This document shows positions 12,066-34,979 of a stretch of DNA of 35,180 bases, piece after piece. Numbering within the stretch: the stretch's first letter is position 1; the number at the start of each line of letters is the position of its first letter. The position numbers and the translations under genes were made by a program. The stretch covers positions 1-35,180 of the forward strand of contig JABLUY010000315.1 of NCBI GenBank assembly GCA_013306675.1. Reading direction: 5' to 3'. The stretch is from Thraustochytrium sp. TN22. Lineage: Eukaryota; Sar; Bigyra; Thraustochytrida; Thraustochytriidae. The notes under the pieces were generated by a model. It was given only the letters and a program-made list of their open reading frames with translations. It made no database searches and was not told the DNA's origin.

Positions 12066-12641
12066 CTCACTGGCAAGAGTCACCAAATGAAACATCCAAG
12101 CATGCACACAATTCCTTACTGTTCTCACTGAAGCGCGTTGTGAGAGGCTCACACCAAGGGAAAAAAAGAAAAAGAAAAAAAAGGTTGCCTGAGCCCGGGC
12201 CGGGGTCTGAAGGACCCTGATCGTCTTTCCTTTCCTTCCCCACACTGCGCAACTCATTTTGACTCAGGAAAAATCCATGATATACTATGCTTGCAGGCAG
12301 GATTCGAGGATATCCTTCTCGCCAGAGCAAGCTTGAGCCGCTCGCGGCTGCGCGTCGCGACGCGTTCGTGCGCTTAGGGGCGCAGATGCGGTGGTTAGGT
12401 GATGGATGATGACACGGGGCGTCGCCTCGCCTCCGAGCCCCTGTTTGGATTCTTGAGAGTACCTTGGACTGGAGACGAGGAGAGGCCGCGGCGCAAACCG
12501 CGTTCAAGCGCGCGTGACTCGGTGCGACGCGGCTGCAAGGCTCAGCTGCCGTGGGCGCGCGACCGAGAGCGCGTCCTTGCTGGCCTTGGGCGCGTGGGAG
12601 CGAGCCGCGGCGGCTCCGCAACAGCGTCCCAGAACGCGAGC
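12066..12641. other. Intergenic region upstream of the transposase
   Basis: Contains an A-rich tract (about 12160-12182) downstream of the repeat-protein gene, and 243 bases in frame with the transposase from an ATG at 12399. That extension has no recognisable feature. I searched by eye for TTAA and for inverted repeats matching the far side of the transposase and saw none. Confidence 0.5.
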
Positions 12642-15600
12642 ATGAGCTCGCAGGGCCAGCCGTCAAGGGGCGACGACGCGAAGGAGGCTGCTGCGACGAG
12701 CGTAGCGGACGATGACGACGACTACGAGGAGGAGGAGGAGGAGGAGGAGGAGCGCGGCGACGAGAGACAACCCGTTCAGTCGACGCGTCGTGCGTCGGGC
12801 TCGTCCCAGAGCGGGGCGTCCGAACGAGATGAAGATGAGGTGCGGCGCGCGGCGAAGCGGCAGAAGACGGGCCCGACCCCGCAGACGAAGGCCTGCAAGT
12901 GCGGCTCGACCACGCACCTGCAGCCGAACAACCGCGCCTGCCCGTTGAACAAGAACGCTGGCCGGGCTGGCTCGTCGGGTAGGGCTAGCAGCCCGACTGC
13001 GACGCGTGCGCCGGCGACCCTCCAGGGGGCTTGGACGCCAGTGCCAAGCCCGGACGAGTACAATCTCGTGGGCGAGGACGAGGCGCGGTCCATCTTCTTC
13101 GACAAGCGCGTCGAGGAACAGGTAAAGTACATGAAGAAGCAGCTGGTCGGCATGGCCGCCAGGGAGCCCGACATGGACGCCTGCGACCCGGTCTCGCTAC
13201 TGCGGCTCGTTGGTGGAGGGGCGATCCAGAATCTCTACTCCTACACGCGCCGGAACGTCTGGGTAAAGCACAAGTGGGCGCTTTCGTACAAGCAGTTCTG
13301 GGTCTTCCTTGCCATGGTGCTGGAGATGGAGTCCATGCGCTCCAAAACCCTGGCGCGAGCTTTCCGCACGGTTCACGTCATGCTCACGGTAGATCACGGC
13401 GTGAACGTAGAGCTCCCCACTCTCGAGCAATTTCAACAGGTCCTCCAGGCCATGGCGATGGTTGATCCGGACGCGATCTCGTCGACAAGCAGTACGTGGG
13501 CCACCAACGCCGACGAGGTGGCTCGCTGGACACCCATGGAGACACGAGCGTTCGAGACTGTACGCAGGATTGCGTGCGCCCCGCACTCGTGCATCGTCAT
13601 TGACGACGAGCTTGTGGGTGGCCGCGCGAAGGACGAGGAGACGAGCGCGACAAGCCAGAGGAAAGCCGGGAAGGACGGCCTCAAGAACGACGCTGTCGCC
13701 GACAGCCTCTTCCGGCTGATGTACGCCGTGCGTCACCACCGCCGCCTCGACTGGTCGCAACAGACTGCCGTCAACGAGGTCCTGGGTGATCTGGCTGAGG
13801 TGCTTGGCAAGGACATGTCTTGCCTCGTGACGGCGGACCGCGGCTACTCCACGCAGTGGCTCTGGGAGCTGCTGGCGAACAAGGGGCTGGCATTTTGCAT
13901 GATCGCAGACGAGCGTGTCGCTCCCTGGCTGCGGTCTGCGGACGACGTGTACGAGGTTCCCTCTCCGGTCGACGCCAACCCGCTCATGGGCCGCGAGATC
14001 ATCACGCTCCGCTCCGTGCTGCAGCTGAGCCGGCCTGGGGCGGCCAACACGGTCCCGATCTACTCGTATACCTTTCGTGACTTTGCAGATGCAAGGACCA
14101 AGACCACGCGGCTGCTCTCGTTCGTCGAGGCAGGCACCGGCCTCCACGAGATGCTGCGTTCTACGCTGGTGATGGTTTTCTACAGCATCCCCAGCGGCAT
14201 CGTGCCTCACCGAGACGTGCTCTTTTATCCGTGTGACGGCAAGATCGCTTCTCTGAAGCAGACCGAGGCGAAACTGCGCGAGAAGTGCGTGCCGCTCACT
14301 TGCTGGCAGCGCAAGCAAGACTGGTTCGTGCTCCGGCTCCTCTGCATCACAGACACCACTGGAGGGACTTTTGCGCTGCACGATGCCGAGGCGCGCAAAC
14401 TCCTGGTGCGCAGCAGCGATGACGACGCTGCACCGGGCCCGCTTACGCTCGAGCGCGCAGCAAAGATCGCCAGCGGCTCGTGGATCGTCAAGCGCACTGC
14501 CTCCACCGAGGACATGAGGGCTGGCACGCTCAACGAGCTCGAGGTCATCCAGGACATCAAGAAGCAGCCATGGTGTGTTGAGCTCTTCGAGGCGGGGCTC
14601 TTTCAGCACAAGAGCATCCCGGGGCTCGGCGCTTCCCCGGACGGTATCGGCCTCCTGCGCAGGAGGCAGGAGCACGGCTCCTTTTCTGACCGCGCGGACA
14701 TCCTCTGCAGCGTCGAGATTAAGATGCGGATTTCACCGAACGGCGGTGTCACGGCAAGTGCGCTCGCGCGCCGCTATGGCAGCTTCTTCACATGCTCCGT
14801 TGGCGACAGCATCTGGTGGGAGGCGGTGCCGCGCGAACATCGTGCGCAGCTTTTGCAACAGGCAGCGGTCTTGGACCTCGATCATGTGCTCTACGTGGTC
14901 ACCACGATCGACCGCATGGTGTACGCCTGCCTCGTCGAGGTGCACGAGGACGAGCGGCTCGCCTACGTCCGGGCCCTGAGGCCGTGGGCGGACCAGCTCA
15001 CGGGCTGGGCACACGCCAGCCTCCACGCCGCCGGACCACCACCGGAGCCACCCGCCTGCTTCGACGAGTCGGAACGCAGCATCCTGGCGACCTACCTACG
15101 CTTGTGGCGCGCGCTGCACAAGCACGTCGCGGCGAATGGGCCCGTGCGACCTGTGCATGTCTTCAGGTGTGGCGCTCAGCACCTGTACAAAGAAATCAAG
15201 GGCGGCGTGGACGGTAACACCCAGTTCGTCGAGAGCATCTCAGACGGTACCATGTGGAGCCTGAATTGCGAGAAGACGGTGGCGCTGCGCACGTTCAAGC
15301 AGTGTGTCGTCAACACGTCCATCCTCTACAGGTGCATGAAGATTGCGCACGACCCGACGCATGATCTCAGCTCCGGCCTTCAGGCGCTGCGCAACAAGAT
15401 GAACCGTACCATGTCTGTATCCGACTTCCGATGCGAACTGGTCATCGCGATGCTGCAGTACAGCACGCAGCTGCCGAGCCCGACCGTGCCGACCACGCCC
15501 GTGCACATTTCTGGCGCGTCGAGCTTTGGTAGCGAGCCAGACGAGTCGAGTGGCTCGGTGTCCCAGGCGTCAAGCCCTGTGGTCCTGTCCACACCGTCTA

Positions 15601-16040
15601 GCCCTGTGCACGTTGGCTGCCAAGGCGTATCTCTGTCTCAGAGCGAGGCCATGGCCTTGTGCAGCAAGGCCCCACAACGGAAGCCCCAAGTGCAGGAGTT
15701 CTTCAACCGGATGGACAAGGGCAAGCGTGTTCGTCTCGACAGGCATCTGGACCACAGGGCTGTGCCCGTTGCGGCGCCCGTCCCGATGAAGCTGGGCGCC
15801 GGAGGCGCGGCAGGCAAGAAGAGACTGGCTCAGAGGACCTGCGTCGTGTGCCTGGGTCAAGCCACCAAGAAGTGCTACACTTGCGGTGTCCCACTGCACT
15901 CCACTCGCCGCGGCAACGAGCAATCGACCTGCTTCGAAAAGTTCCACAAGAGGACGCGGATCGACGTGCCCCTCAAGTGGTCGGCGAGCTCATCGCGCTC
16001 CAGCAACAGCTCGAACAGCTCGACATCCAATCGACTGTGA
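12642..16040 (+). CDS. PiggyBac-family transposase with inserted YqaJ-type nuclease domain
   Basis: Predicted 1132 residues from the ATG at 12642; an earlier in-frame ATG at 12399 is possible but adds sequence without features. In order: an acidic N-terminus (EEEEEEEE); a small zinc-knuckle-like motif, C85-x-C87-x4-H92-x7-C100; and, from about residue 138, a DDE_Tnp_1_7-like (piggyBac) domain. Its likely catalytic aspartates are in CIVIDDELVGGR (D321/D322) and TADRGYSTQWLWELL (D399), with a third candidate in FYPCDGKIASL (D532). Next is a PD-(D/E)XK nuclease domain of the YqaJ/lambda-exonuclease type: helix NELEVIQDIKKQPW, then LGASPDGIG (D667) and CSVEIKM (E692, K694). Near the C-terminus is a piggyBac-style zinc-binding domain, C1067-x2-C-x7-C-x2-C, ending CFEKFH (C1097, H1102). 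Transposases of this family cut and paste DNA, usually at TTAA; YqaJ enzymes digest DNA ends. All motifs appear intact. No terminal repeats were found, so the gene may be domesticated or its ends may be unusual. Confidence 0.8.
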   Translation: MSSQGQPSRGDDAKEAAATSVADDDDDYEEEEEEEEERGDERQPVQSTRRASGSSQSGASERDEDEVRRAAKRQKTGPTPQTKACKCGSTTHLQPNNRACPLNKNAGRAGSSGRASSPTATRAPATLQGAWTPVPSPDEYNLVGEDEARSIFFDKRVEEQVKYMKKQLVGMAAREPDMDACDPVSLLRLVGGGAIQNLYSYTRRNVWVKHKWALSYKQFWVFLAMVLEMESMRSKTLARAFRTVHVMLTVDHGVNVELPTLEQFQQVLQAMAMVDPDAISSTSSTWATNADEVARWTPMETRAFETVRRIACAPHSCIVIDDELVGGRAKDEETSATSQRKAGKDGLKNDAVADSLFRLMYAVRHHRRLDWSQQTAVNEVLGDLAEVLGKDMSCLVTADRGYSTQWLWELLANKGLAFCMIADERVAPWLRSADDVYEVPSPVDANPLMGREIITLRSVLQLSRPGAANTVPIYSYTFRDFADARTKTTRLLSFVEAGTGLHEMLRSTLVMVFYSIPSGIVPHRDVLFYPCDGKIASLKQTEAKLREKCVPLTCWQRKQDWFVLRLLCITDTTGGTFALHDAEARKLLVRSSDDDAAPGPLTLERAAKIASGSWIVKRTASTEDMRAGTLNELEVIQDIKKQPWCVELFEAGLFQHKSIPGLGASPDGIGLLRRRQEHGSFSDRADILCSVEIKMRISPNGGVTASALARRYGSFFTCSVGDSIWWEAVPREHRAQLLQQAAVLDLDHVLYVVTTIDRMVYACLVEVHEDERLAYVRALRPWADQLTGWAHASLHAAGPPPEPPACFDESERSILATYLRLWRALHKHVAANGPVRPVHVFRCGAQHLYKEIKGGVDGNTQFVESISDGTMWSLNCEKTVALRTFKQCVVNTSILYRCMKIAHDPTHDLSSGLQALRNKMNRTMSVSDFRCELVIAMLQYSTQLPSPTVPTTPVHISGASSFGSEPDESSGSVSQASSPVVLSTPSSPVHVGCQGVSLSQSEAMALCSKAPQRKPQVQEFFNRMDKGKRVRLDRHLDHRAVPVAAPVPMKLGAGGAAGKKRLAQRTCVVCLGQATKKCYTCGVPLHSTRRGNEQSTCFEKFHKRTRIDVPLKWSASSSRSSNSSNSSTSNRL

Positions 16041-24955: not shown

Positions 24956-27900
24956 CTAGGTAGAGGTCGCAGCCGGATCGGAACGCCGCAGTCGGCACGC
25001 ACGCTTGAGGAGCTCCCGAACCAACGCGGGGCGCTCGTGATCCACGACGAGGTGTCCGATTTCGTGATAGTCCTCCGCAACGCCCGACCGCCAGGTTAGC
25101 ACCTCGAGATGATCAAAGAGCTTGGCGCGGAGTTCGCCGTGAAAGTCATCCCGCTCGGGACTGGAAAAGTCCCAACCGCTCTCGACGGCCAAGAAATGCA
25201 CGTCTGCGAGCGAGTCAGGCAACCTCGGTTCGGCACCTTCCTCGCCGTCGCCAGCGCGTGAAACGTTTAGTTGGCGCTCCACATCCACGGAGCAGCCCGG
25301 CTCGAGTACCACAACGACGACCTGCGCCTTGACGACGTCGGCGGCGATCGTCGTCTTAGCGGCGCGAAGGTCGGCTTTCAACGCCTTGACTACCTCGGAG
25401 TTGTACTTGCCAACAAGTGCAATGACAGGCACGTCGAAATCCGAGAGAGTGACCTCCTTGGACCTGTCCAGAGATGCCGGCGCGTGGAACTCCGCGTGCT
25501 TCGCCAAGGCCTCCAGCATGGCGTCTTCCTCGTAGAGGCGCCGGCGGTATGGCAGTATCGTTCCTTTGTCCAGCGCCTTTTTCGCAGCGTCGATGAAGGT
25601 GTCAGGACTTGAGTCGGGGTCGAGGCGCTGTAGGCCTTCTGTGAGTCGACGCAGCGCCAGTACGAAGCGATACTTCTTGACGGCCTTGCGGGCCTTCGCC
25701 ACCGCATGCTCCCAGGTCTCGACCGAGGCCCCCTCGCCCGCTCCATCTCGCTCCGCGCGGGCCGCCGCCCAGTTGCGCTGACACACTGCCTCGTCATCCA
25801 TGGCACGCTTCATCTTGAGCTCCGTGAGCTCGTCATGCATCGTGTTGAACTCCTTGTCCCGCGTTTTGTGCACGTTGCGATACTCCCAAGGCACATCGTC
25901 GTGGTGCCACGGATGGAAGCGATCGTCCGTCTCGACAAGGAAGAAGATGCGGTTCTTGAGCGAGGGCTCGCCGTCGCGCCGGGAGAAGTGCTCCAGCGCA
26001 AAGCGGAGCTCCGCCAGGCAAAAGGGCCGAAAAAGCACGTCCGTGGTGAGGACCATCACGAAGCACTGTGAGGTGACGATGCCGCGGTACATGGTCTCCA
26101 GCGTGATCTCGGGCGCGCGCATGTCAATCCAAGCCGTCATCTGACTGCGCTCTAAACCCTGAAGCAGGTCCTTGACGATGCCCGCCGCCTGCGACTGCAT
26201 GTGGGAGAGAAAAAAGTGGTAGGTCGGCAGATCGATCAGCTCCGTCCGGAGAGACTCCTTCGCCCAATCATCGACGGTCAGCCTGGGCCTGGGAGGACGC
26301 ATGGTCTGCCGCAGGAGGCTGAAGCGGTTGTGGCTGGGGAGGACCCGCCAGTGAATGCGCAGGATCCGCAAGGAAAGGCGCTCGCGCTTCTCCGGCCCAG
26401 CACGAGGGGCGGTGATGGGCGAGGATGACGCAGGCGCGTCGCTCGGCGGAGGCGTCTTGTCGAAGAACGGGTGACTGAGGATCTCCGCGAGCGAAATGCG
26501 CTCCTCCGGGTCACCGCGCAGGCAGAGGCGAACCAGGTCTTGCGCCGCCGTGATGTCGTCCGAATCGCCATTCAAACCGATCTCCCGCTGCTTGCCTGCC
26601 GTTTGCGCGCTCGGGCCATGGTCTTCCGGCGACTGCGCGTGAATCCGCTCCAGCCTCTCCTCGTCCAGGCCGAGCCAGTTCATGAGCTCCATCTTGTCGC
26701 GGCGGTGCACCAAGTTGTCGTCCGAATCGTCCATCATAAAGAGCTTGGTGCCGGACAGCAGCTGGTACAAGACGACACCAAAGCTCCACACGTCCAGTGC
26801 CTCGGTGCCCGTGGGTTGCTTCCCGTCCGCAAACAGCCAGCGGGCGACCTCCGGCGCCGCGTAGCCAGAGCTGGTCTTCTCGCTGAGGGGCTCGCCCAGC
26901 TTGACGGAAGCGTCCAGGTCGATGAGCTGCCACTTCTCGTGCTGCGCAAGACCGAGACCGGCGCCCGTGGACGACTCTTTCCATTCCTCGGAGACACGGA
27001 GGGCGCCGGCCCCGTCGTCTTTGAAGGTGTGAGACTCCGACGCCGACACGCGCACTGCGTTGCGCGGCTTCACGTCGCCGTGCACGCGACCGCTCTCGTG
27101 CAGCTCGCGAAGCGCGTCGGCGAGCTTGTGCGCAATCACGCGGACCTTGTCCAGGTCGCGCCCAGCGAAACGTTCCGTGTTGATGGCCTCGAAGAGCGAG
27201 CGAGACCCACGCTGCATGATCAGGCACAGATTCTCGTTCTGCGCATCCTCCTCCTGCGGATCGTCCCGGTGCAGCAGGCCCAGGCAGCCCTCTAGGGGCG
27301 ACAAGCGCGCGTCGACCTCGCGCGCGTACTGCTCCTTGTCGCGCATGACCTTGATCGCGACTGCCTTGTTGAGCTTGATGTCGGTCGCGAAGTGAACTGC
27401 GCACGTGAGGGACTCGTGCACGGGCGGGCCCTCCGCAATGGCGTAGCGGTCCAGAAAGGTACCGTAGGTCCTTCCCCAGGCCTGCGTATCCGGGCGGGCG
27501 AGCACAAGCGATCGCACCGAGCGACCGCTAGAGTCCTCTGCACGCATGAGCTCGAGGCCAGACGCGAGGGTGAGCATGCCAAAGAGCTCCTCGCAAAAGT
27601 ATGCGGGCAGCGCGAGAAGTCCGTCGACGCGGCACTCCAGCAAAGTATAGAGGATGGGCAGCGTCTGGGCGGAGGCGGTCTTATCGGTCTCGTCAGGTAG
27701 TTCCAGCCAGGAGGCAGGGTCGCGAATAGCGAAGCCGTCGTGCATTATCATGACGTGCACGAAAGCAGCGAAGACCTCCGCCCTCTTGCGCGCCAGCGTG
27801 TGCGCTGCCGAGCTCCACACTTGCCCTTGTTCGCTGCTCAGGAGGTACTTGCGAAGCAGCTCCAGGCGCTCGTGCACGGCGAGGGGAGTCCGTTGAGGCT

Positions 27901-28032
27901 TCCCGTCAGAGTCCTCGCCACTCTCCCTTGAGAAGAGATCGTAGAAGGATAAGTTTTTTGTAGGAAGCCACGGCAGCCCTCTGTCAGAAGTGCTTTCAGC
28001 ACGATCTTTAGCTGTTCTCTCTTTCTCTCTTT
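24956..28032 (-). CDS. Protein kinase-TIR fusion, receptor-like signalling protein (5' exon missing)
   Basis: One long exon of about 1025 codons. The frame is open to 28102 but has no ATG before about 27750. A strong acceptor (ten T, then AG) lies at 28033-28044, so the start codon is probably in an upstream exon not identified. Parts in order: a conserved helical N-terminal domain (about 27930-27430: HERLELLRKYLLSSEQ); a protein kinase with VAIKVM (Lys codon 27350-27352), VHGDVKPRN (Asp codon 27074-27076), a DLD in place of DFG (26912-26920), YAAPEVARW and DVWSFGVVLYQLLSG; a TIR domain (about 26225-25880: YHFFLSHMQS, then SQCFVMVLTTDVLF and RPFCLAELRFAL), whose C-x-x-E glutamate (26009-26011) matches the catalytic Glu of NAD-cleaving TIRs; and a C-terminal region with an alpha/beta look (PVIALVGKYNSEV, AQVVVVVLEPGCSVD). 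TIR domains signal in immunity and cell death; kinase-TIR fusions are rare. No membrane helix is seen. It is homologous to the LRR-kinase gene at 32.4-35.0 kb. Confidence 0.78.
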
Positions 28033-28083
28033 CTAAAAAAAAAAGAACGAGGGGAGGGATGGGGAAGACAGTCTTAGAGGCGC

Positions 28084-28206
28084 TATGCGTTTCGCTTAGC
28101 AAGGGCGGTGGGAATTCTGGACGACTGACTAGGTTAGTGGGGTCTTAGATTTTCCTCTAGCAAGCGATTCGCAATCTTAGCAGACCTATGCGTTTCGCTT
28201 AGCAAG
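28084..28206. repeat. 20-bp direct repeat upstream of the kinase-TIR exon
   Basis: The identical 20-mer tatgcgtttcgcttagcaag occurs at 28084-28103 and 28187-28206, with related ctctagcaagcgattcgcaa between them. It lies in the presumed intron or upstream region of the kinase-TIR gene. Function unknown. Confidence 0.8.
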
Positions 28207-28319: not shown

Positions 28320-28922
28320 GTGCAGCAGTGCAGCTTTGCCGAGTCGGCCACGCTCAGCTTGCCTCGATAGAGCTCGTCCGCAAAAAGATCGCCCGCCACG
28401 ACGATCGTGGCGAGCATGCCGACCACGTTCAGCTCGCCCGCCTAGACGATCGTGGCGAGCATGCCGATCGTGGAACTTGCCCGACACGTCGACCGTGGCA
28501 AGCATGTCCACCTCCTTCAGCATGTCCACCTCCTTCAGCTCGCTCGCCTACTAGGCGTTGCTCGGAACGTCGACCGTGGCGAGCATGTTGTACAGCAAGT
28601 GCAGTTCCGTCAAGTGGGCCAAGCTCACCCGCAGCTCGCCAAGCTTGCGCGCCAAGAGATCGCCCGCCATGTCGACCGTGGCGAGCATGCCGACCAGCAA
28701 GTCTGAGATCTGCCGTGTCGGCCATTTTCCATGGAAACATTTTGCCGAGGTCCTGTTGGCGCAGGCTGTCTTGTAGGTCTCGTTCAAGTCGTCCAGGTCG
28801 GTGCTGTTGTGCATCGCGCGCACGTACGCGACATCGCCGAGGTCCTTCGAGCTGACGTTGAGCTGGCCTTCCAGCTCGTTGCTAGGAGGCCACCACCTCG
28901 TGTCGGCGCCATCCGGCGCCAC
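28320..28922 (-). pseudogene. Degenerate repeat region, possibly decayed LRR coding sequence
   Basis: Minus-strand translation gives recurring phrases such as GMLATVDMAGDLLARKLGEL and GMLATIVVAGDLFADELY, and an LRR-like LTELHLLYNMLATV. The DNA has repeated words, gtcgaccgtggcgagcatg and agatcgcccgccac (or agatcgcccgccat), spaced irregularly. Reading frames are broken several times, and no intact gene or splice pattern is apparent. It lies upstream of the kinase-TIR exon, so it may be a remnant of an N-terminal repeat region of that gene or of a neighbouring family member. This type of repeat differs from the IGDEG repeats further along. Confidence 0.35.
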
Positions 28923-30943: not shown

Positions 30944-32441
30944 CTAGGCGGCCATTTGGCTCGCTCCAGAAGGATCTGGTTCAACGTCTGTGCTCTTGAA
31001 CTCTGCGCCTGAGGTGGCGCTTGTGGTACTTGTGCTTTTGCTGCTGGCGGACTCTTTGCTCGGGAAGAGCTGACGGATCATGTTCTCAGTCTTTGCGCCG
31101 CTGCGCTTGGCCTTTTTAGGAGTTGATTGCTCCGTTGAGGCGGACGCCTTGCGAGCAGTCTTAGTTCTTGAAATGCTGCTGGCTAGGTTGAAGGAAGGGT
31201 CTGGACGCCATCCGAGCACTGCTTGATTTCCAAGCACTTCTGAGTATGCGGGCCTTTGCCCGCCCGGCTTTTTGCAAACAACGATATAAGAGTCAGTCGT
31301 GCAAGCACGAACCATCATTTTGAGCGACCAAACGTACTCAATCGACGTTAGCTTTGTTTCTGAACCCAGCAGAAGGGCCATGTCGTGGAAGTTGGCTGGG
31401 CCGATCCTGACGTTCATAAGACTGTGTCGATGCGATGTCGTCGTGAGCCCGCTTGCTGCTGCCGGCTTGCCTCGGCGAGACCCATCTCAAAGTCAAGCCG
31501 GCTGGCCGCGCGGCCGTCCGGCAACACGTGCGGACCTGCACGCTCCGACCGTGCCGCTCTCCGCCCGTGCCACAGCCGCAAGAGACCGGGCATCACGAAG
31601 GAAGGAAGGAACTCACTTGAGCGACGTCAGCGCGCACTGGCCGCTTCCCAGGGCTCCCGCCAGCGACCCAACGCCCTCTGAGCCGATCTGGTTGTGCCCA
31701 AGACTGTGTCGATGCGATGTGGTCGTGAGCCCGCTTGCTGCTGGCTGGCCGCGCGGCCGTTCGGCGACATGTGCGGACCTGCGCGCTCCGACCGCGCCGC
31801 TCTCCGCCCGTGCAAACGGCGCAAGAGACAGCGAGGATGGAACTCACTGAAGCGATGTCAGCGCGCACTGACCGCTCCCCAGGGCTCCCGCCAGCGACAC
31901 AGCGCCCTCGTCACGGATATTGTTGGCAAGAAGACTGTGTCGATGCGATGTGGTCGTGAGCCCGCTTGCTGCTGGCGGCTTGCCTCGGCGAGGCCCATCT
32001 CAAAGTCAAGCCGGCTGGCCGCGCGGCCGTCCGGCGACATGTGCTGACCTGCGCGCTCCGACCGCGCAGCTCTCCACCCGTGCCACTGGCGCAAGAGACC
32101 GCGTATCACAAAGGAAGGAACTCACTTGAGCGACGTCAGCGCGCACTGGCCGCTCCCCAGGGCGACCGCCAACGACCCGGCGCCCTCGTCGCCAATCTGG
32201 TTGGCTCCAAGCCTGTGTCGATGCGATGTGATCGTGAGCGCGCTTGCTGCTGAGCGGCTTGCCTCGGCGAGACCCATCTCGAAGTCAAGCCGGCAGGCCG
32301 CGCGGTCGTCCGGCGACATGTGCGGACCTGCGCGCTCCGACCGCGCCGCTCTCCGCCCGTGCCACCGGCGCAAGAGACCGCGCATCACGAAGGAAGGAAG
32401 GAACTCACGTGAGCGACGTCAGCGCGCACTGGCCGCTCCAG
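30944..32441 (-). CDS. Leucine-rich repeat protein with basic C-terminal tail (5' part lost in gap)
   Basis: Minus-strand exons: 32409-32441 (cut by the gap), 32126-32212, 31848-31934, 31617-31703, and a terminal exon 31421-30944. Each complete internal exon is 87 nt and encodes one 29-residue LRR: NQIGSEGVGSLAGAL, NNIRDEGAVSLAGAL and NQIGDEGAGSLAVAL, each followed by GSGQCALTSL. Introns (195, 144, 191, 196 bp) begin GTGAGTT, end CACAG and are all phase 2. The terminal exon starts with a diverged repeat (RIGPANFHDMALLLGSETKL), then YVWSLKMMVR, as in the neighbouring LRR-kinase gene. It then departs into a unique tail with a nuclear-signal-like TPKKAKRSGAK, ending in SQMAA and TAG. So this member has the receptor part without the kinase. 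The repeat pattern is the ribonuclease-inhibitor/NLR subtype. The N-terminus is unknown because of the gap. Confidence 0.7.
31617..32441 (-). repeat. Tandem LRR exon-intron units, first array
   Basis: Units of roughly 230-285 bp, each one 87-nt exon plus its intron, are repeated head to tail. Intron sequences are as similar between units as exon sequences are (for example caccggcgcaagagaccgcg and gaaggaaggaactcac recur), so whole exon-intron blocks were duplicated recently or are kept alike by gene conversion. Confidence 0.85.
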
Positions 32442-32445
32442 NNNN
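32442..32445. other. Assembly gap (NNNN)
   Basis: Four N bases join a kinase-coding exon (higher coordinates) to an LRR exon (lower coordinates), both on the minus strand. The kinase stops mid-domain right after LGEPLSEKTS, whereas the paralogue at 26.9 kb continues there for another 650 residues. The four Ns are probably a placeholder for an unknown length of sequence. Confidence 0.97.
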
Positions 32446-34979
32446 GCTGGTCTTCTCGCTGAGGGGCTCGCCCAGCTTGACGGAAGCGTCCAGGTCGATG
32501 AGTTTCCACTCTTCGTCCTGCTCGCCACCGTGTTCGGCACCCGTGGAGGGCACTTTCCATGTCTCGGAGACGGAAAGGCCGCCGTCTTCGTTTACTTGAA
32601 AGGTGCGAGACTCCGACTCCGTTACGCGCACCGCGTTGCGCGGCTTCACGTCGCCGTGCACGCGACCCTTCTCGTGCAGCTCGTGAAGCGCGCCAGCGAG
32701 CTTGTGCGCAATCACGCGGACCTTGCCCAGGTCGCGCCCAGCGAAGCGCTCCGTGTTTATGGCTTCGAAGAGCGACCGGGACCCGCGTGGCATGACCAGG
32801 CACAGGTTCTGGTTCTGTTCCTTCACCTCCTCCGGATCGTCGCGGTTCAGCAGACCAAGGCAGCCCCCCAAGTCCGACTTGCGCGTGTTGACCTCGCGTG
32901 CGTACTGCTCCTCGCCGTGCATGATCTTGATCGCGACTGCCATGTTGGAATTCATGTCGGTCGCGAAGTAAACTGCGCACGTAAGGGACTCGTGCACGGG
33001 CGGGCCCTCCGCAATGGCATAGCGGTTTAGGAAGGTACCATATTTCCTTCCCCATGCCTCCGTGTCCTTGCGAGCGACCACGAGCGACCGCACCGAGCGC
33101 CCGCCGGTGTCTTCCGCACGCATGAGCGCAAGCTTTGACGCGAGGTTGAGCATACGAAACACCTCCTCGCAAAAGCTTGTGGGTAGCGCGGGATGTCCGT
33201 CGAGGCGGCAATCGAGCAACGCGTGCATGATGGGCACCGCATGTACGGAGGCGGTCTCGACAGGTTTTTCCAGCCAGGAAGCATGCTCCCGGATAGCGAA
33301 GCCGTGGGTAATCAGGATCTGCACGAAGGCAGCGAAGACTTCTGCACGCTCGCGCGCGAGCTTGTGCGCGGCCGAGCTCCACACTTGCCTTTGTTCGCTG
33401 CTCAGGAGGTACTTGCGAAGCAGCTCCACACGTTCGTGCAGGGTGATGGGGGTCCGGTGAGAGTCCCAGTCAGAGTCCTCGCCGCTCCAACTGGAGAAAA
33501 GACCGCGGAAAGATAATTCTGCAGGAAGACCTAGCAGCGCTCTGTTTTCAAGCGAGGAAATGAAGTCAGTCGTGAGAACAATAACCACCATCTTGAGCGA
33601 CCAAACGTACGCAAGTGACGTTAGATTTGTTTCTGAAGCCAGCAGATGGGCCAGGTCGTAGAAGCCGGCTGGGCCGATGTTGTTGCCGTTAAGACTGTGT
33701 CAATGTGATATGGTCGTAAGCCCACTCGCTGCTGGCGGCTTTTCCTTGGCAAGGCTATCTCAAGGTCAAGCCAGTGGCGGCGCGACCGTCCGGCGACATG
33801 TGCGGACCTGCGCGCTCCGACCGCGCCGCTCCCCGCTCGTGCCACCGGCGCAAGAGACGGCGCATCACGAAGGAAGGAACTCACTACAGCTCCGTCAGCG
33901 CGCACTGGCCGCTCCCCAGGGCGAACGCCAGCGACCCAGCGCCCTCGTCGCCGATCTTGTTGTTCTGAAGACTGTGTCGATGCGATGTGGTCGTGAGCCC
34001 GTTTGCTGCTGGCGGTTTGCCTCGGCGAGGCCCATCTCAAAGTCATGCCGGCTGGCCGCGATGGAACTCACTTGAGCGACGTCAGCGCGCACTGGCCGCT
34101 CCCCAGGGCTCCCGCCAGCGACCCAGCGCCCTCGTCGCCGATGTTGTTGTGCTGAAGACTGTGTCGATGCGATGTGGTCGTGAGCCCGCTTGCTGCTGGC
34201 GGCTTGCCTCGGCGAGGCCCATCTCAAGCCGGCTGGCCGCGCGGCCGTCCAAGAACATGTGCGGACCTGCGCGCTCCGACCGCGCCGCTCTCCGCCCGTG
34301 CCACCGGCGCAAGAGACCGCGCATCACGAAGGAAGGAATGAAGGAACTCACGAAAGCGACGTCAGCGCGCACTGGCCGCTCCCCAGGGCGACCGCCAGCG
34401 ACCCAGCGCCCTCGTCGCCGATCTTGTAGAGTCCAATTCTGTGTCGTGTCGATGCGAGATTGTCGTGAGCCCGCATTGCCCAGCGAGGCACATCTCGAAG
34501 TCGAGCCGACTGGCCGCACGGCCGTCCGACGACAACTGCAGACCTGCGCGCTCTGACCGCGCCGCTCTCTGCCTGTGCCACCGGCGCAGGAGACCGCACA
34601 TCACGAAAGAACTCACTTGTGCTTTGTCAGCGCGCCCTGGTTGTTCTCCTGGGTGACCTTCGGCGCCTCAACGCTCTCTGGGTCAATTCTGTTGCCTTGG
34701 AGACTGTGTCCAGTGTGACGTCATTAGTTCGCTCTCTGCTGGCGGTTTGCCTTGGTGAGGCCCATCCCAATGTCAAGTCGGCTGGCCGCGCGACCGTCCG
34801 GGGACATCTCAGGACCTGCGCGCTCCGACCGCGCCGCTCTCCGCCCGTGCCAACGGCGCAAGAGACCGCGCATCACGAAGGAAGGAACTCACTCCAGCGA
34901 CGTCAGCGCGCACTGACCGCTCCCCAGGGCGACCGCCAGTGACCCAACGCCCTCGTCGCCGATCTTGTTGCGTCCAAGA
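32446..34979 (-). CDS. LRR-protein kinase fusion (3' part lost in gap, 5' part beyond window)
   Basis: Minus-strand exons: 34979-34893, 34703-34617, 34438-34352, 34158-34072, 33971-33885 (87 nt each), then one long exon from 33694 into the gap at 32446. Introns (189, 178, 193, 100, 190 bp) are all phase 2, with GTGAGTT donors and CACAG acceptors. Each small exon gives one 29-residue RI-like LRR (NKIGDEGAGSLAVAL, GSGQCALTSL); the 34617 copy is strongly diverged. The long exon starts with a final repeat (NNIGPAGFYDLAHLLASETN, then LTSLAYVWSLK) and runs without a stop into the same N-terminal domain and kinase as the gene at 24.9-28.0 kb: HERVELLRKYLLSSEQ, VAIKIM, RVHGDVKPRN, LIDLDASVKLGE. Catalytic Lys and Asp are kept and the DLD variant is shared. 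A TIR domain may follow inside the gap, by analogy only. No membrane helix lies between LRR and kinase, so it is probably intracellular. Confidence 0.75.

What the first reader, a model, noticed from the sequence alone, without database searches (positions are those of the whole stretch)
31617..34979. Variation between LRR exons falls on the predicted binding face while frame and introns stay nearly constant
Across nine joints of both arrays, the pattern is LTSL-x-L-x-x-N-x-I. The x after LTSL is D, K, S, N, Y in the second array and T, N, H, N in the first. The residues before and after the N also vary (GR, QG, GL, QH, QN, NG, GA, LA, GH). The rest (IGDEGAGSLA, VALGSGQCALTSL) is nearly fixed, and introns are also similar. 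In LRR structures those x positions are solvent-exposed on the concave beta-sheet. Conserved introns with variable surface codons is the picture expected of diversifying selection on a recognition surface, as in NLRs.
Basis: partly seen in the sequence, partly recalled or inferred. Interest (0 to 1): 0.88.

Follow-up and report, generated by a model that had tools for sequence, protein, structure and literature searches.

The report
Diversifying leucine-rich-repeat exons beside a kinase
A stretch of an unidentified, apparently eukaryotic genome carries rows of equal-sized exons, each making one leucine-rich repeat, whose binding-face residues differ far more than the DNA around them, as expected if the protein evolves to recognise changing partners and signals through an attached protein kinase.

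Summary
Two minus-strand arrays consist of 87-bp exons (8 of 8 complete ones), each one 29-residue ribonuclease-inhibitor-type LRR; 9 of 9 complete introns run GTGAGT...ACACAG in phase 2. Codons x5, x7, x8 have pN 0.55 (7 exons, divergent E2 left out; 0.57 with it), against framework pN 0.07 and pS 0.185 and intron p 0.10-0.12. They are the most diverse of 3654 codon triplets; codon models give omega 2.7-6.9 in 18 of 18 fits (P 0.0067 or less). Diversifying selection on three of five concave positions is supported; x2 and x3 hardly vary, and introns are less constant than claimed (100-196 bp). Array A is fused in frame to a kinase; a paralogue is kinase-TIR. No NB-ARC/NACHT was found, so membership of the NLRs is not supported. 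Closest known: 72-bp phase-2 LRR exons of brown-algal ROCO genes and 90-bp ones of Tetrahymena; the RI-type 29-residue module joined to a kinase is the variant. Caveats: bacterial control arrays also vary at x (4 informative of 30 loci); a four-N assembly gap truncates the kinase; few copies; immune function is inference.

The parts
34893..34979 (-). LRR exon E1 (87 bp, LGRNKIGDEGVGSLAVALGSGQCALTSL+D)
   Evidence: splice sites and reading frame
34617..34703 (-). LRR exon E2, divergent (LQGNRIDPESVEAPKVTQENNQGALTKH+K): frame and splice sites kept, three core leucines lost
34352..34438 (-). LRR exon E3 (IGLYKIGDEGAGSLAVALGSGQCALTSL+S)
34072..34158 (-). LRR exon E4 (LQHNNIGDEGAGSLAGALGSGQCALTSL+N)
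33885..33971 (-). LRR exon E5 (LQNNKIGDEGAGSLAFALGSGQCALTEL+Y)
32446..33694 (-). Terminal exon T1 of array A: last LRR, a linker, then a protein kinase domain in the same frame without an intron; cut by the gap after LIDLDASVKLGEPLSEKTS
32442..32445 (.). Assembly gap (4 N); true length unknown, kinase C-lobe missing
32409..32441 (-). Partial LRR exon E6 (SGQCALTSL+T), 3' end only
32126..32212 (-). LRR exon E7 (LGANQIGDEGAGSLAVALGSGQCALTSL+N)
31848..31934 (-). LRR exon E8 (LLANNIRDEGAVSLAGALGSGQCALTSL+H)
31617..31703 (-). LRR exon E9 (LGHNQIGSEGVGSLAGALGSGQCALTSL+N)
30944..31421 (-). Terminal exon T2 of array B: last LRR, then a tail rich in Ser, Thr, Ala and Lys instead of a kinase, stop codon at its end
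34704..34892 (-). Phase-2 intron between E1 and E2, the first of 9 complete introns (the others: 34439-34616, 34159-34351, 33972-34071, 33695-33884, 32213-32408, 31935-32125, 31704-31847, 31422-31616), all GTGAGT...ACACAG
24956..28102 (-). Gene C: paralogue of the array A kinase, with whole kinase domain and then a TIR_2 domain (its true start codon is not established); no LRR exon found upstream in the window

Best explanation
This is a modular recognition gene (or two neighbouring genes) of an unidentified, G+C-rich, apparently eukaryotic organism. Each 87-bp exon with phase-2 introns on both sides adds one 29-residue RI-type LRR without shifting the frame, so copies can be duplicated, lost, exchanged or skipped in splicing (shown: the layout; inferred: the processes). 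The strand-face residues x5, x7, x8 (and x10) have been driven apart by positive selection while the leucine framework is conserved (supported by the rate tests). The resulting concave surface most likely binds a changing partner, and binding is passed to the kinase encoded in frame in the last exon (domain shown; signalling inferred). In the paralogue the kinase is followed by a TIR domain, so a kinase-TIR output for array A is likely but lies beyond the gap. A defence or self/non-self receptor is the most likely use (inferred).
For: 8 of 8 complete exons are 87 bp with open frame, while the 9 complete introns have 9 different lengths of 100-196 bp. pN at x5/x7/x8 is 0.547 without E2 (0.570 with) against framework pN 0.070 (0.149) and pS 0.185 (0.202). 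Codon ML: omega_x 2.69-6.92, omega_framework 0.25-0.73, P(omega_x=1) 4.5e-6 to 0.0067 in 18 fits (3 trees x 3 row sets x 2 site sets). Neutral simulation on the intron tree reached the observed x5/x7/x8 value in 0 of 2000 with 8 and with 7 exons; with all branches tripled in 11 and 10 of 2000. 11 random columns of the exon-intron unit reach the x value in 0 of 100000 draws. The third base of the x8 codon is C in 8 of 8 while its first two bases are among the most diverse columns, which speaks for selection on the amino acid, not a mutation hotspot. Terminal LRR exons T1 and T2 differ by 17 nonsynonymous and 1 synonymous changes over 33 codons (Fisher P 0.037). LRR type: Pfam LRR_6 3.1e-24 (array A) and 4.9e-12 (array B); best solved relatives are ribonuclease inhibitors (1dfj 3.1e-22), with NLRP proteins among the 60 shown. 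Kinase and TIR: Pkinase 2.6e-22 and TIR_2 2.3e-8 in gene C; Pkinase 1.6e-5 in the truncated A copy, below Pfam's cut-off, but that copy is 72% identical to gene C over 374 codons.
Against: Only 8 complete exons and 3-4 codons bear on the selection test, the copies are not independent, and exchange between copies would break the tree model (a star tree gives the same result). x2 and x3 of the same strand are nearly fixed. Bacterial LRR arrays without introns also show high pN at x (4 informative arrays, pN_x/pS_framework 0.59-4.19, against 4.26 here by the same rule). Kinase A against C has dN/dS 0.50, only moderate constraint. E2 looks half-decayed, and the T1/T2 changes include framework sites. 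Splicing, expression, ligand and organism are unknown. The AlphaFold model of gene C failed (mean pLDDT 32).
Confidence: 0.62

Rival explanations
1. Ordinary LRR behaviour: x positions are structurally free, and the rest is held by fold constraint and by homogenisation between copies; no diversifying selection.
For: Variable x and a conserved framework also appear in the 4 informative bacterial arrays (of 30 loci, 15 had at least 3 equal units and 4 of these had recent pairs). Framework and introns are about equally diverged (0.103 and 0.104-0.121), as homogenisation would give.
Against: Freedom from constraint gives at most the neutral rate, but x codons exceed introns and framework pS about three- to fivefold, and neutral simulation on the intron tree fails to reach them. 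Homogenisation that spares only some 11 nt on both sides of an intron needs selection to protect them.
Confidence: 0.2
2. The arrays are decaying or mis-assembled repeat fragments next to an assembly gap, not working genes.
For: NNNN at 32442-32445 right between kinase and E6; E2 has lost three core leucines; the E6 edge is 2 nt short of the usual sequence (read by eye); no transcript data.
Against: All 8 complete exons and both terminal exons are open, all 9 complete introns keep splice signals, and omega in the framework is below 1 in 18 of 18 fits.
Confidence: 0.1
3. The LRR-kinase recognises a fast-changing partner of the same species (mating type, kin or allorecognition), or an internal partner, not pathogens.
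For: The rate tests do not say what is bound, and nothing in this window tests it.
Against: TIR and kinase outputs joined to LRRs are usual in defence receptors (general knowledge). Of the 6 ORFs scanned with Pfam none points to mating.
Confidence: 0.15
4. A local mutation hotspot at exon edges near the splice sites, not selection.
For: The most diverse columns flank the intron on both sides.
Against: The third base of x8 is invariant in 8 of 8, the L6 and N9 codons beside it are nearly fixed, and the adjacent splice signals are fixed.
Confidence: 0.03

Closest known systems
Shuffling LRR exons of brown-algal LRR-ROC-COR (ROCO) genes (PMC11378527: abstract and sections 11 and 15 read; Zambounis 2012, which it follows, not seen)
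   Same: One LRR per exon, exons of one length, phase 2, in arrays; four positively selected sites on the concave side.
   Different: 72-bp exons and 23-residue LRRs there, 87 bp and 29 residues of RI type here; ROC-COR output there, kinase (and in a paralogue TIR) here. If their four sites are x3, x5, x7, x8 (my inference), x3 differs: it is nearly fixed here.
90-bp LRR exon arrays of Tetrahymena (PMC6564038: passages and section 23 read)
   Same: Tandem LRR exons of one length, phase-2 introns, junction residue split by the intron; some fused to protein kinase domains.
   Different: 90 bp there; that paper reports purifying selection overall, and the passages I saw hold no test of the concave face; it calls the layout undescribed outside Tetrahymena.
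NLR (NLRP, NOD, NLRC) LRR exons of man (PMC6642158: passages read)
   Same: RI-type LRRs of 28-29 residues, frame-preserving exons with the border at one fixed place in the strand.
   Different: NLRs carry a NACHT domain (recalled); none found here. NLRP exons hold two LRRs, NOD and NLRC exons one of 28 residues.
LRR-TIR-Kinase proteins of lancelet (PMC11747288: one passage read)
   Same: Same three kinds of domain in one protein.
   Different: Exon layout not compared; here TIR follows the kinase in the paralogue, and LRR plus TIR in one chain is not shown.

Membership tests
RI-type (LRR_6) leucine-rich repeat proteins | 28-29-residue LRR with LxxLxLxxNxI and Pfam LRR_6 match | tested here: met
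   29-residue units; LRR_6 3.1e-24 and 4.9e-12; RI best in PDB
NLR receptors | central NB-ARC or NACHT domain | tested here: not met
   No such Pfam match in gene C, the A kinase ORF or the two spliced arrays; the N-terminal part of array A lies outside the window
NLR receptors | C-terminal LRR | tested here: not met
   In array A the LRRs precede the kinase
LRR receptor-like kinases | LRR, one transmembrane helix, kinase | tested here: inconclusive
   LRR and kinase in frame; the best 19-residue stretch scores 1.68 in hydropathy but holds K and D; the N-terminus lies outside the window
Brown-algal-type shuffling LRR exons | single-LRR exons of one length with phase-2 introns | tested here: met
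   8 of 8 complete exons 87 bp, 9 of 9 complete introns phase 2
Brown-algal-type shuffling LRR exons | positive selection at concave sites | tested here: met
   omega_x 2.69-6.92 in 18 fits, for x5, x7, x8 with or without x10
Brown-algal ROCO | ROC-COR domains | tested here: not met
   kinase instead; no ROC or COR match
Tetrahymena 90-bp LRR exons | exons exactly 90 bp | tested here: not met
   87 bp
LRR-kinase-TIR receptor | all three domains in one protein | tested here: inconclusive
   Array A has LRR and kinase, cut by the gap; gene C has kinase and TIR without LRR
any expressed receptor | transcription and splicing of the exons | not testable with these tools
   no RNA data held

The most novel reading that the evidence does not exclude
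A further, independent invention of shufflable single-LRR exon cassettes under diversifying selection, this time with RI-type repeats feeding an LRR-kinase-TIR receptor in a eukaryote yet to be identified, with neighbouring arrays as exon donors and, by splicing, a combinatorial repertoire.
Probability: 0.3. Interest if true: 0.82.

Novelty: new variant of a known kind. Interest (0 to 1): 0.56.

Why it matters
Single-LRR exons of fixed length and phase are described in brown algae, Tetrahymena and human NLRs, among others (PMC11378527, PMC6564038, PMC6642158). One more case, with selection on the binding face and a kinase as output, would suggest that eukaryotes repeatedly build receptor repertoires this way, and makes the idea testable with long reads and RNA from one organism.

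Tried and rejected
Whole-genome copies: no genome is held for this window, so counts rest on 8 complete exons. LRR exons upstream of gene C: no match by tblastn; blastn gave only matches of 17-25 nt with E 0.017 or more. Relatives of the kinase-TIR protein in viral contigs: none confirmed of 5 stretches. LRR relatives: 1 viral contig and 29 prokaryote loci; used only as controls. Of these 30 loci, 7 had fewer than 4 motifs and 15 had at least 3 equal units, of which 4 had pairs recent enough to count. Structure of gene C from a two-sequence alignment: mean pLDDT 32, discarded; no fold search was run. The spliced LRR array was not handed to the structure predictor, because its rule takes only sequences read letter for letter from the DNA; placement of the x positions rests on the LRR motif and the alignment to ribonuclease inhibitor. 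That RI residues at x5 and x7 touch the ribonuclease is recalled; a paper search for them found 0 papers. Organism: not identified; a thraustochytrid-like protist was only a guess. Anti-phage library: 22 families matched gene C, 21 of them within residues 184-531, the kinase part; not pursued. One search printed nothing (it assumed 84-bp exons). An earlier count said 31 control loci; the right number is 30.
Full report
Anatomy. On the minus strand, from the right end of the window inwards, 87-bp exons repeat every 187-283 bp, apart from one step of 1476 bp across the kinase and the gap. Eight are complete (E1-E5, E7-E9); one (E6) is cut by a gap of 4 N at 32442-32445. All 8 complete exons are 87 bp and open; each begins with the last base of a codon and ends with the first two of the next, so the introns are phase 2. 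All 9 complete introns start GTGAGT and end ACACAG; their lengths are 189, 178, 193, 100, 190, 196, 191, 144 and 195 bp. Each array ends in a terminal exon. T1 (from 33694) holds a last LRR and runs on in frame, without an intron, into a kinase; T2 (from 31421) holds a last LRR and a tail of 124 residues rich in Ser, Ala, Thr and Lys with a stop. The spliced A product is open for 561 residues up to the gap; the spliced B product, from E7, has only its final stop.

Observation check. The residue x5 is itself split by the intron: two bases come from one exon and the third from the next, while x7, x8 and x10 lie at the start of the next exon. The variable strip of each repeat is therefore made by two exons. 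Framework exceptions are E2, which has lost three core leucines, codon 15 (V, G or F), Y for N in E3, and V for N in T2. Introns differ by 1.6-25.7% in pairs (45 pairs of 10 introns, one of them incomplete). Several of the closest intron pairs link the two arrays (I4 with I8, 1 of 61 sites; I4 with I7, 4 of 100), which fits exchange or duplication between them.

Rates. With all 8 exons, pN at x5/x7/x8 is 0.570 and in the framework 0.149, with framework pS 0.202; without the divergent E2 the values are 0.547, 0.070 and 0.185; without E2 and E3, 0.508, 0.067 and 0.204. Synonymous diversity in the x codons themselves is also raised (pS 0.335-0.375 at x5/x7/x8, few sites), so pN/pS within these codons alone is only 1.35-1.70. 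Pooled nucleotide differences without E2 are 0.460 at the four x codons, 0.103 in the framework, 0.121 in the downstream and 0.104 in the upstream introns. The x triplet is the most nonsynonymously diverse of all 3654 codon triplets, and the x quadruplet of all 23751; the five classical concave positions x2, x3, x5, x7, x8 together are reached by 285 of 118755 sets with E2 and by 184 of 118755 without. A codon model with separate omega for x and framework but one synonymous rate, on the intron tree, on a tree of exon plus intron, and on a star tree, with 8, 7 or 6 exons and with or without x10 (18 fits), gives omega_x 2.69-6.92, omega_framework 0.25-0.73, and P for omega_x = 1 from 4.5e-6 to 0.0067. 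Neutral simulation on the intron tree gave 0 of 2000 at or above the observed value; with branches doubled 0-3 of 2000, with branches tripled 10-26 of 2000. Sliding the same mask round the unit, 1 of 278 placements reaches the value without E2 and 2 of 278 with it, its own place counted. T1 and T2 differ by 17 nonsynonymous and 1 synonymous changes over 33 codons (P 0.037), spread over the exon and including framework sites, so that comparison may also reflect decay of T2.

Results against. The control used the 30 fetched loci (1 viral, 29 prokaryote). 15 had at least three units of equal length, and 4 of these had pairs with framework identity of 75% or more. Their pN_x was 0.45-0.53 and pN_x/pS_framework 1.49, 1.55, 0.59 and 4.19 (the last from 2 pairs), against 4.26 for the window by the same rule (6 units, 8 pairs). 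Variation at x is thus common in LRR arrays; the window is at the high end but not alone. x2 (T in 8 of 8) and x3 (S in 6 of 8) hardly vary. Kinase A and C have dN/dS 0.50 over 374 codons, only moderate constraint. All P values rest on few, related sequences.

Structure of the surface. PMC2747839 (passages) gives aaLXLaa as the strand on the inner concave face, followed by the C-terminal side loop. Here X is x5, and x7 and x8 are the following two; x10 then falls in the loop (my reading). The alignment to pig ribonuclease inhibitor puts S-L-Q-H of the window on W-L-W-E; that these RI residues touch the ribonuclease is recalled. No model of the array could be made here.

Neighbourhood. Gene C (28102-24956, minus) is a paralogue of the A kinase: Pkinase 2.6e-22, then TIR_2 2.3e-8, with a weak PDB match of the TIR part to Cat1 (E 0.44). 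Both kinases read VAIK, HGDVKPRN and LIDLD (that these are the catalytic places, canonically HRD and DFG, is recalled). No LRR exons were found near gene C in the window. Whether array A also ends in TIR is hidden by the gap. Gene A has a borderline hydrophobic stretch between LRR and kinase (1.68), so a membrane position is open. That the source is a eukaryote is inferred from the introns; no call named it.

Comparison with print. PMC11378527 (abstract, sections 11 and 15) describes 72-bp phase-2 single-LRR exons in brown-algal ROCO genes, with four positively selected sites on the concave side and alternative splicing. PMC6564038 (passages and section 23) describes 90-bp LRR exons with phase-2 introns in Tetrahymena, some fused to protein kinase, and says that its authors know of no other organism with them. 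PMC6642158 (passages) reports frame-preserving LRR exons in NLRs with the border at the same place in the strand. PMC2939053 (passages) reports LRR-receptor kinases with a transmembrane helix in oomycetes. A paper search for thraustochytrid with leucine-rich repeat and exon found 0 papers. A search for LRR-kinase-TIR strings found 2 papers, one of which, PMC11747288, names lancelet LRR-TIR-Kinase proteins (one passage). In the listings, several of them capped, I saw no report of 87-bp RI-type LRR exons fused to a kinase; this is limited to that library and those lists.

Verdict. The comparison with NLRs holds for how it may work, not for membership. It is a new variant of the known single-LRR-exon receptor arrays; immune function is the likeliest reading but unproved.

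Noticed in passing
30944-31320 (minus strand): The tail of array B holds SRTKTARKASASTEQSTPKKAKRSG, which resembles a histone H3 N-terminal tail (recalled) with one residue missing; could be chance.
   Followed up: no
12399-16040 (+): Long intronless ORF with a weak transposase match (DDE_Tnp_1, E 0.0016, below Pfam's cut-off) and, further on, a stretch that looks like a YqaJ-type exonuclease motif (GASPDG, recalled).
   Followed up: no
24956-28102 (minus strand): Protein kinase and TIR domain in one ORF, followed by about 320 residues without a Pfam match.
   Followed up: partly
28389-28539: 45-bp tandem repeat upstream of gene C; the neighbouring ORF 28551-28922 on the minus strand holds MLATVD twice.
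   Followed up: no
34617-34703 (minus strand): Exon E2 keeps length, frame and splice sites but has lost three core leucines, as if tolerated by skipping or on its way to decay.
   Followed up: partly
L001 2071-4430: Two neighbouring intronless LRR proteins with near-identical repeats on a contig filed as viral, with bacterial look.
   Followed up: partly
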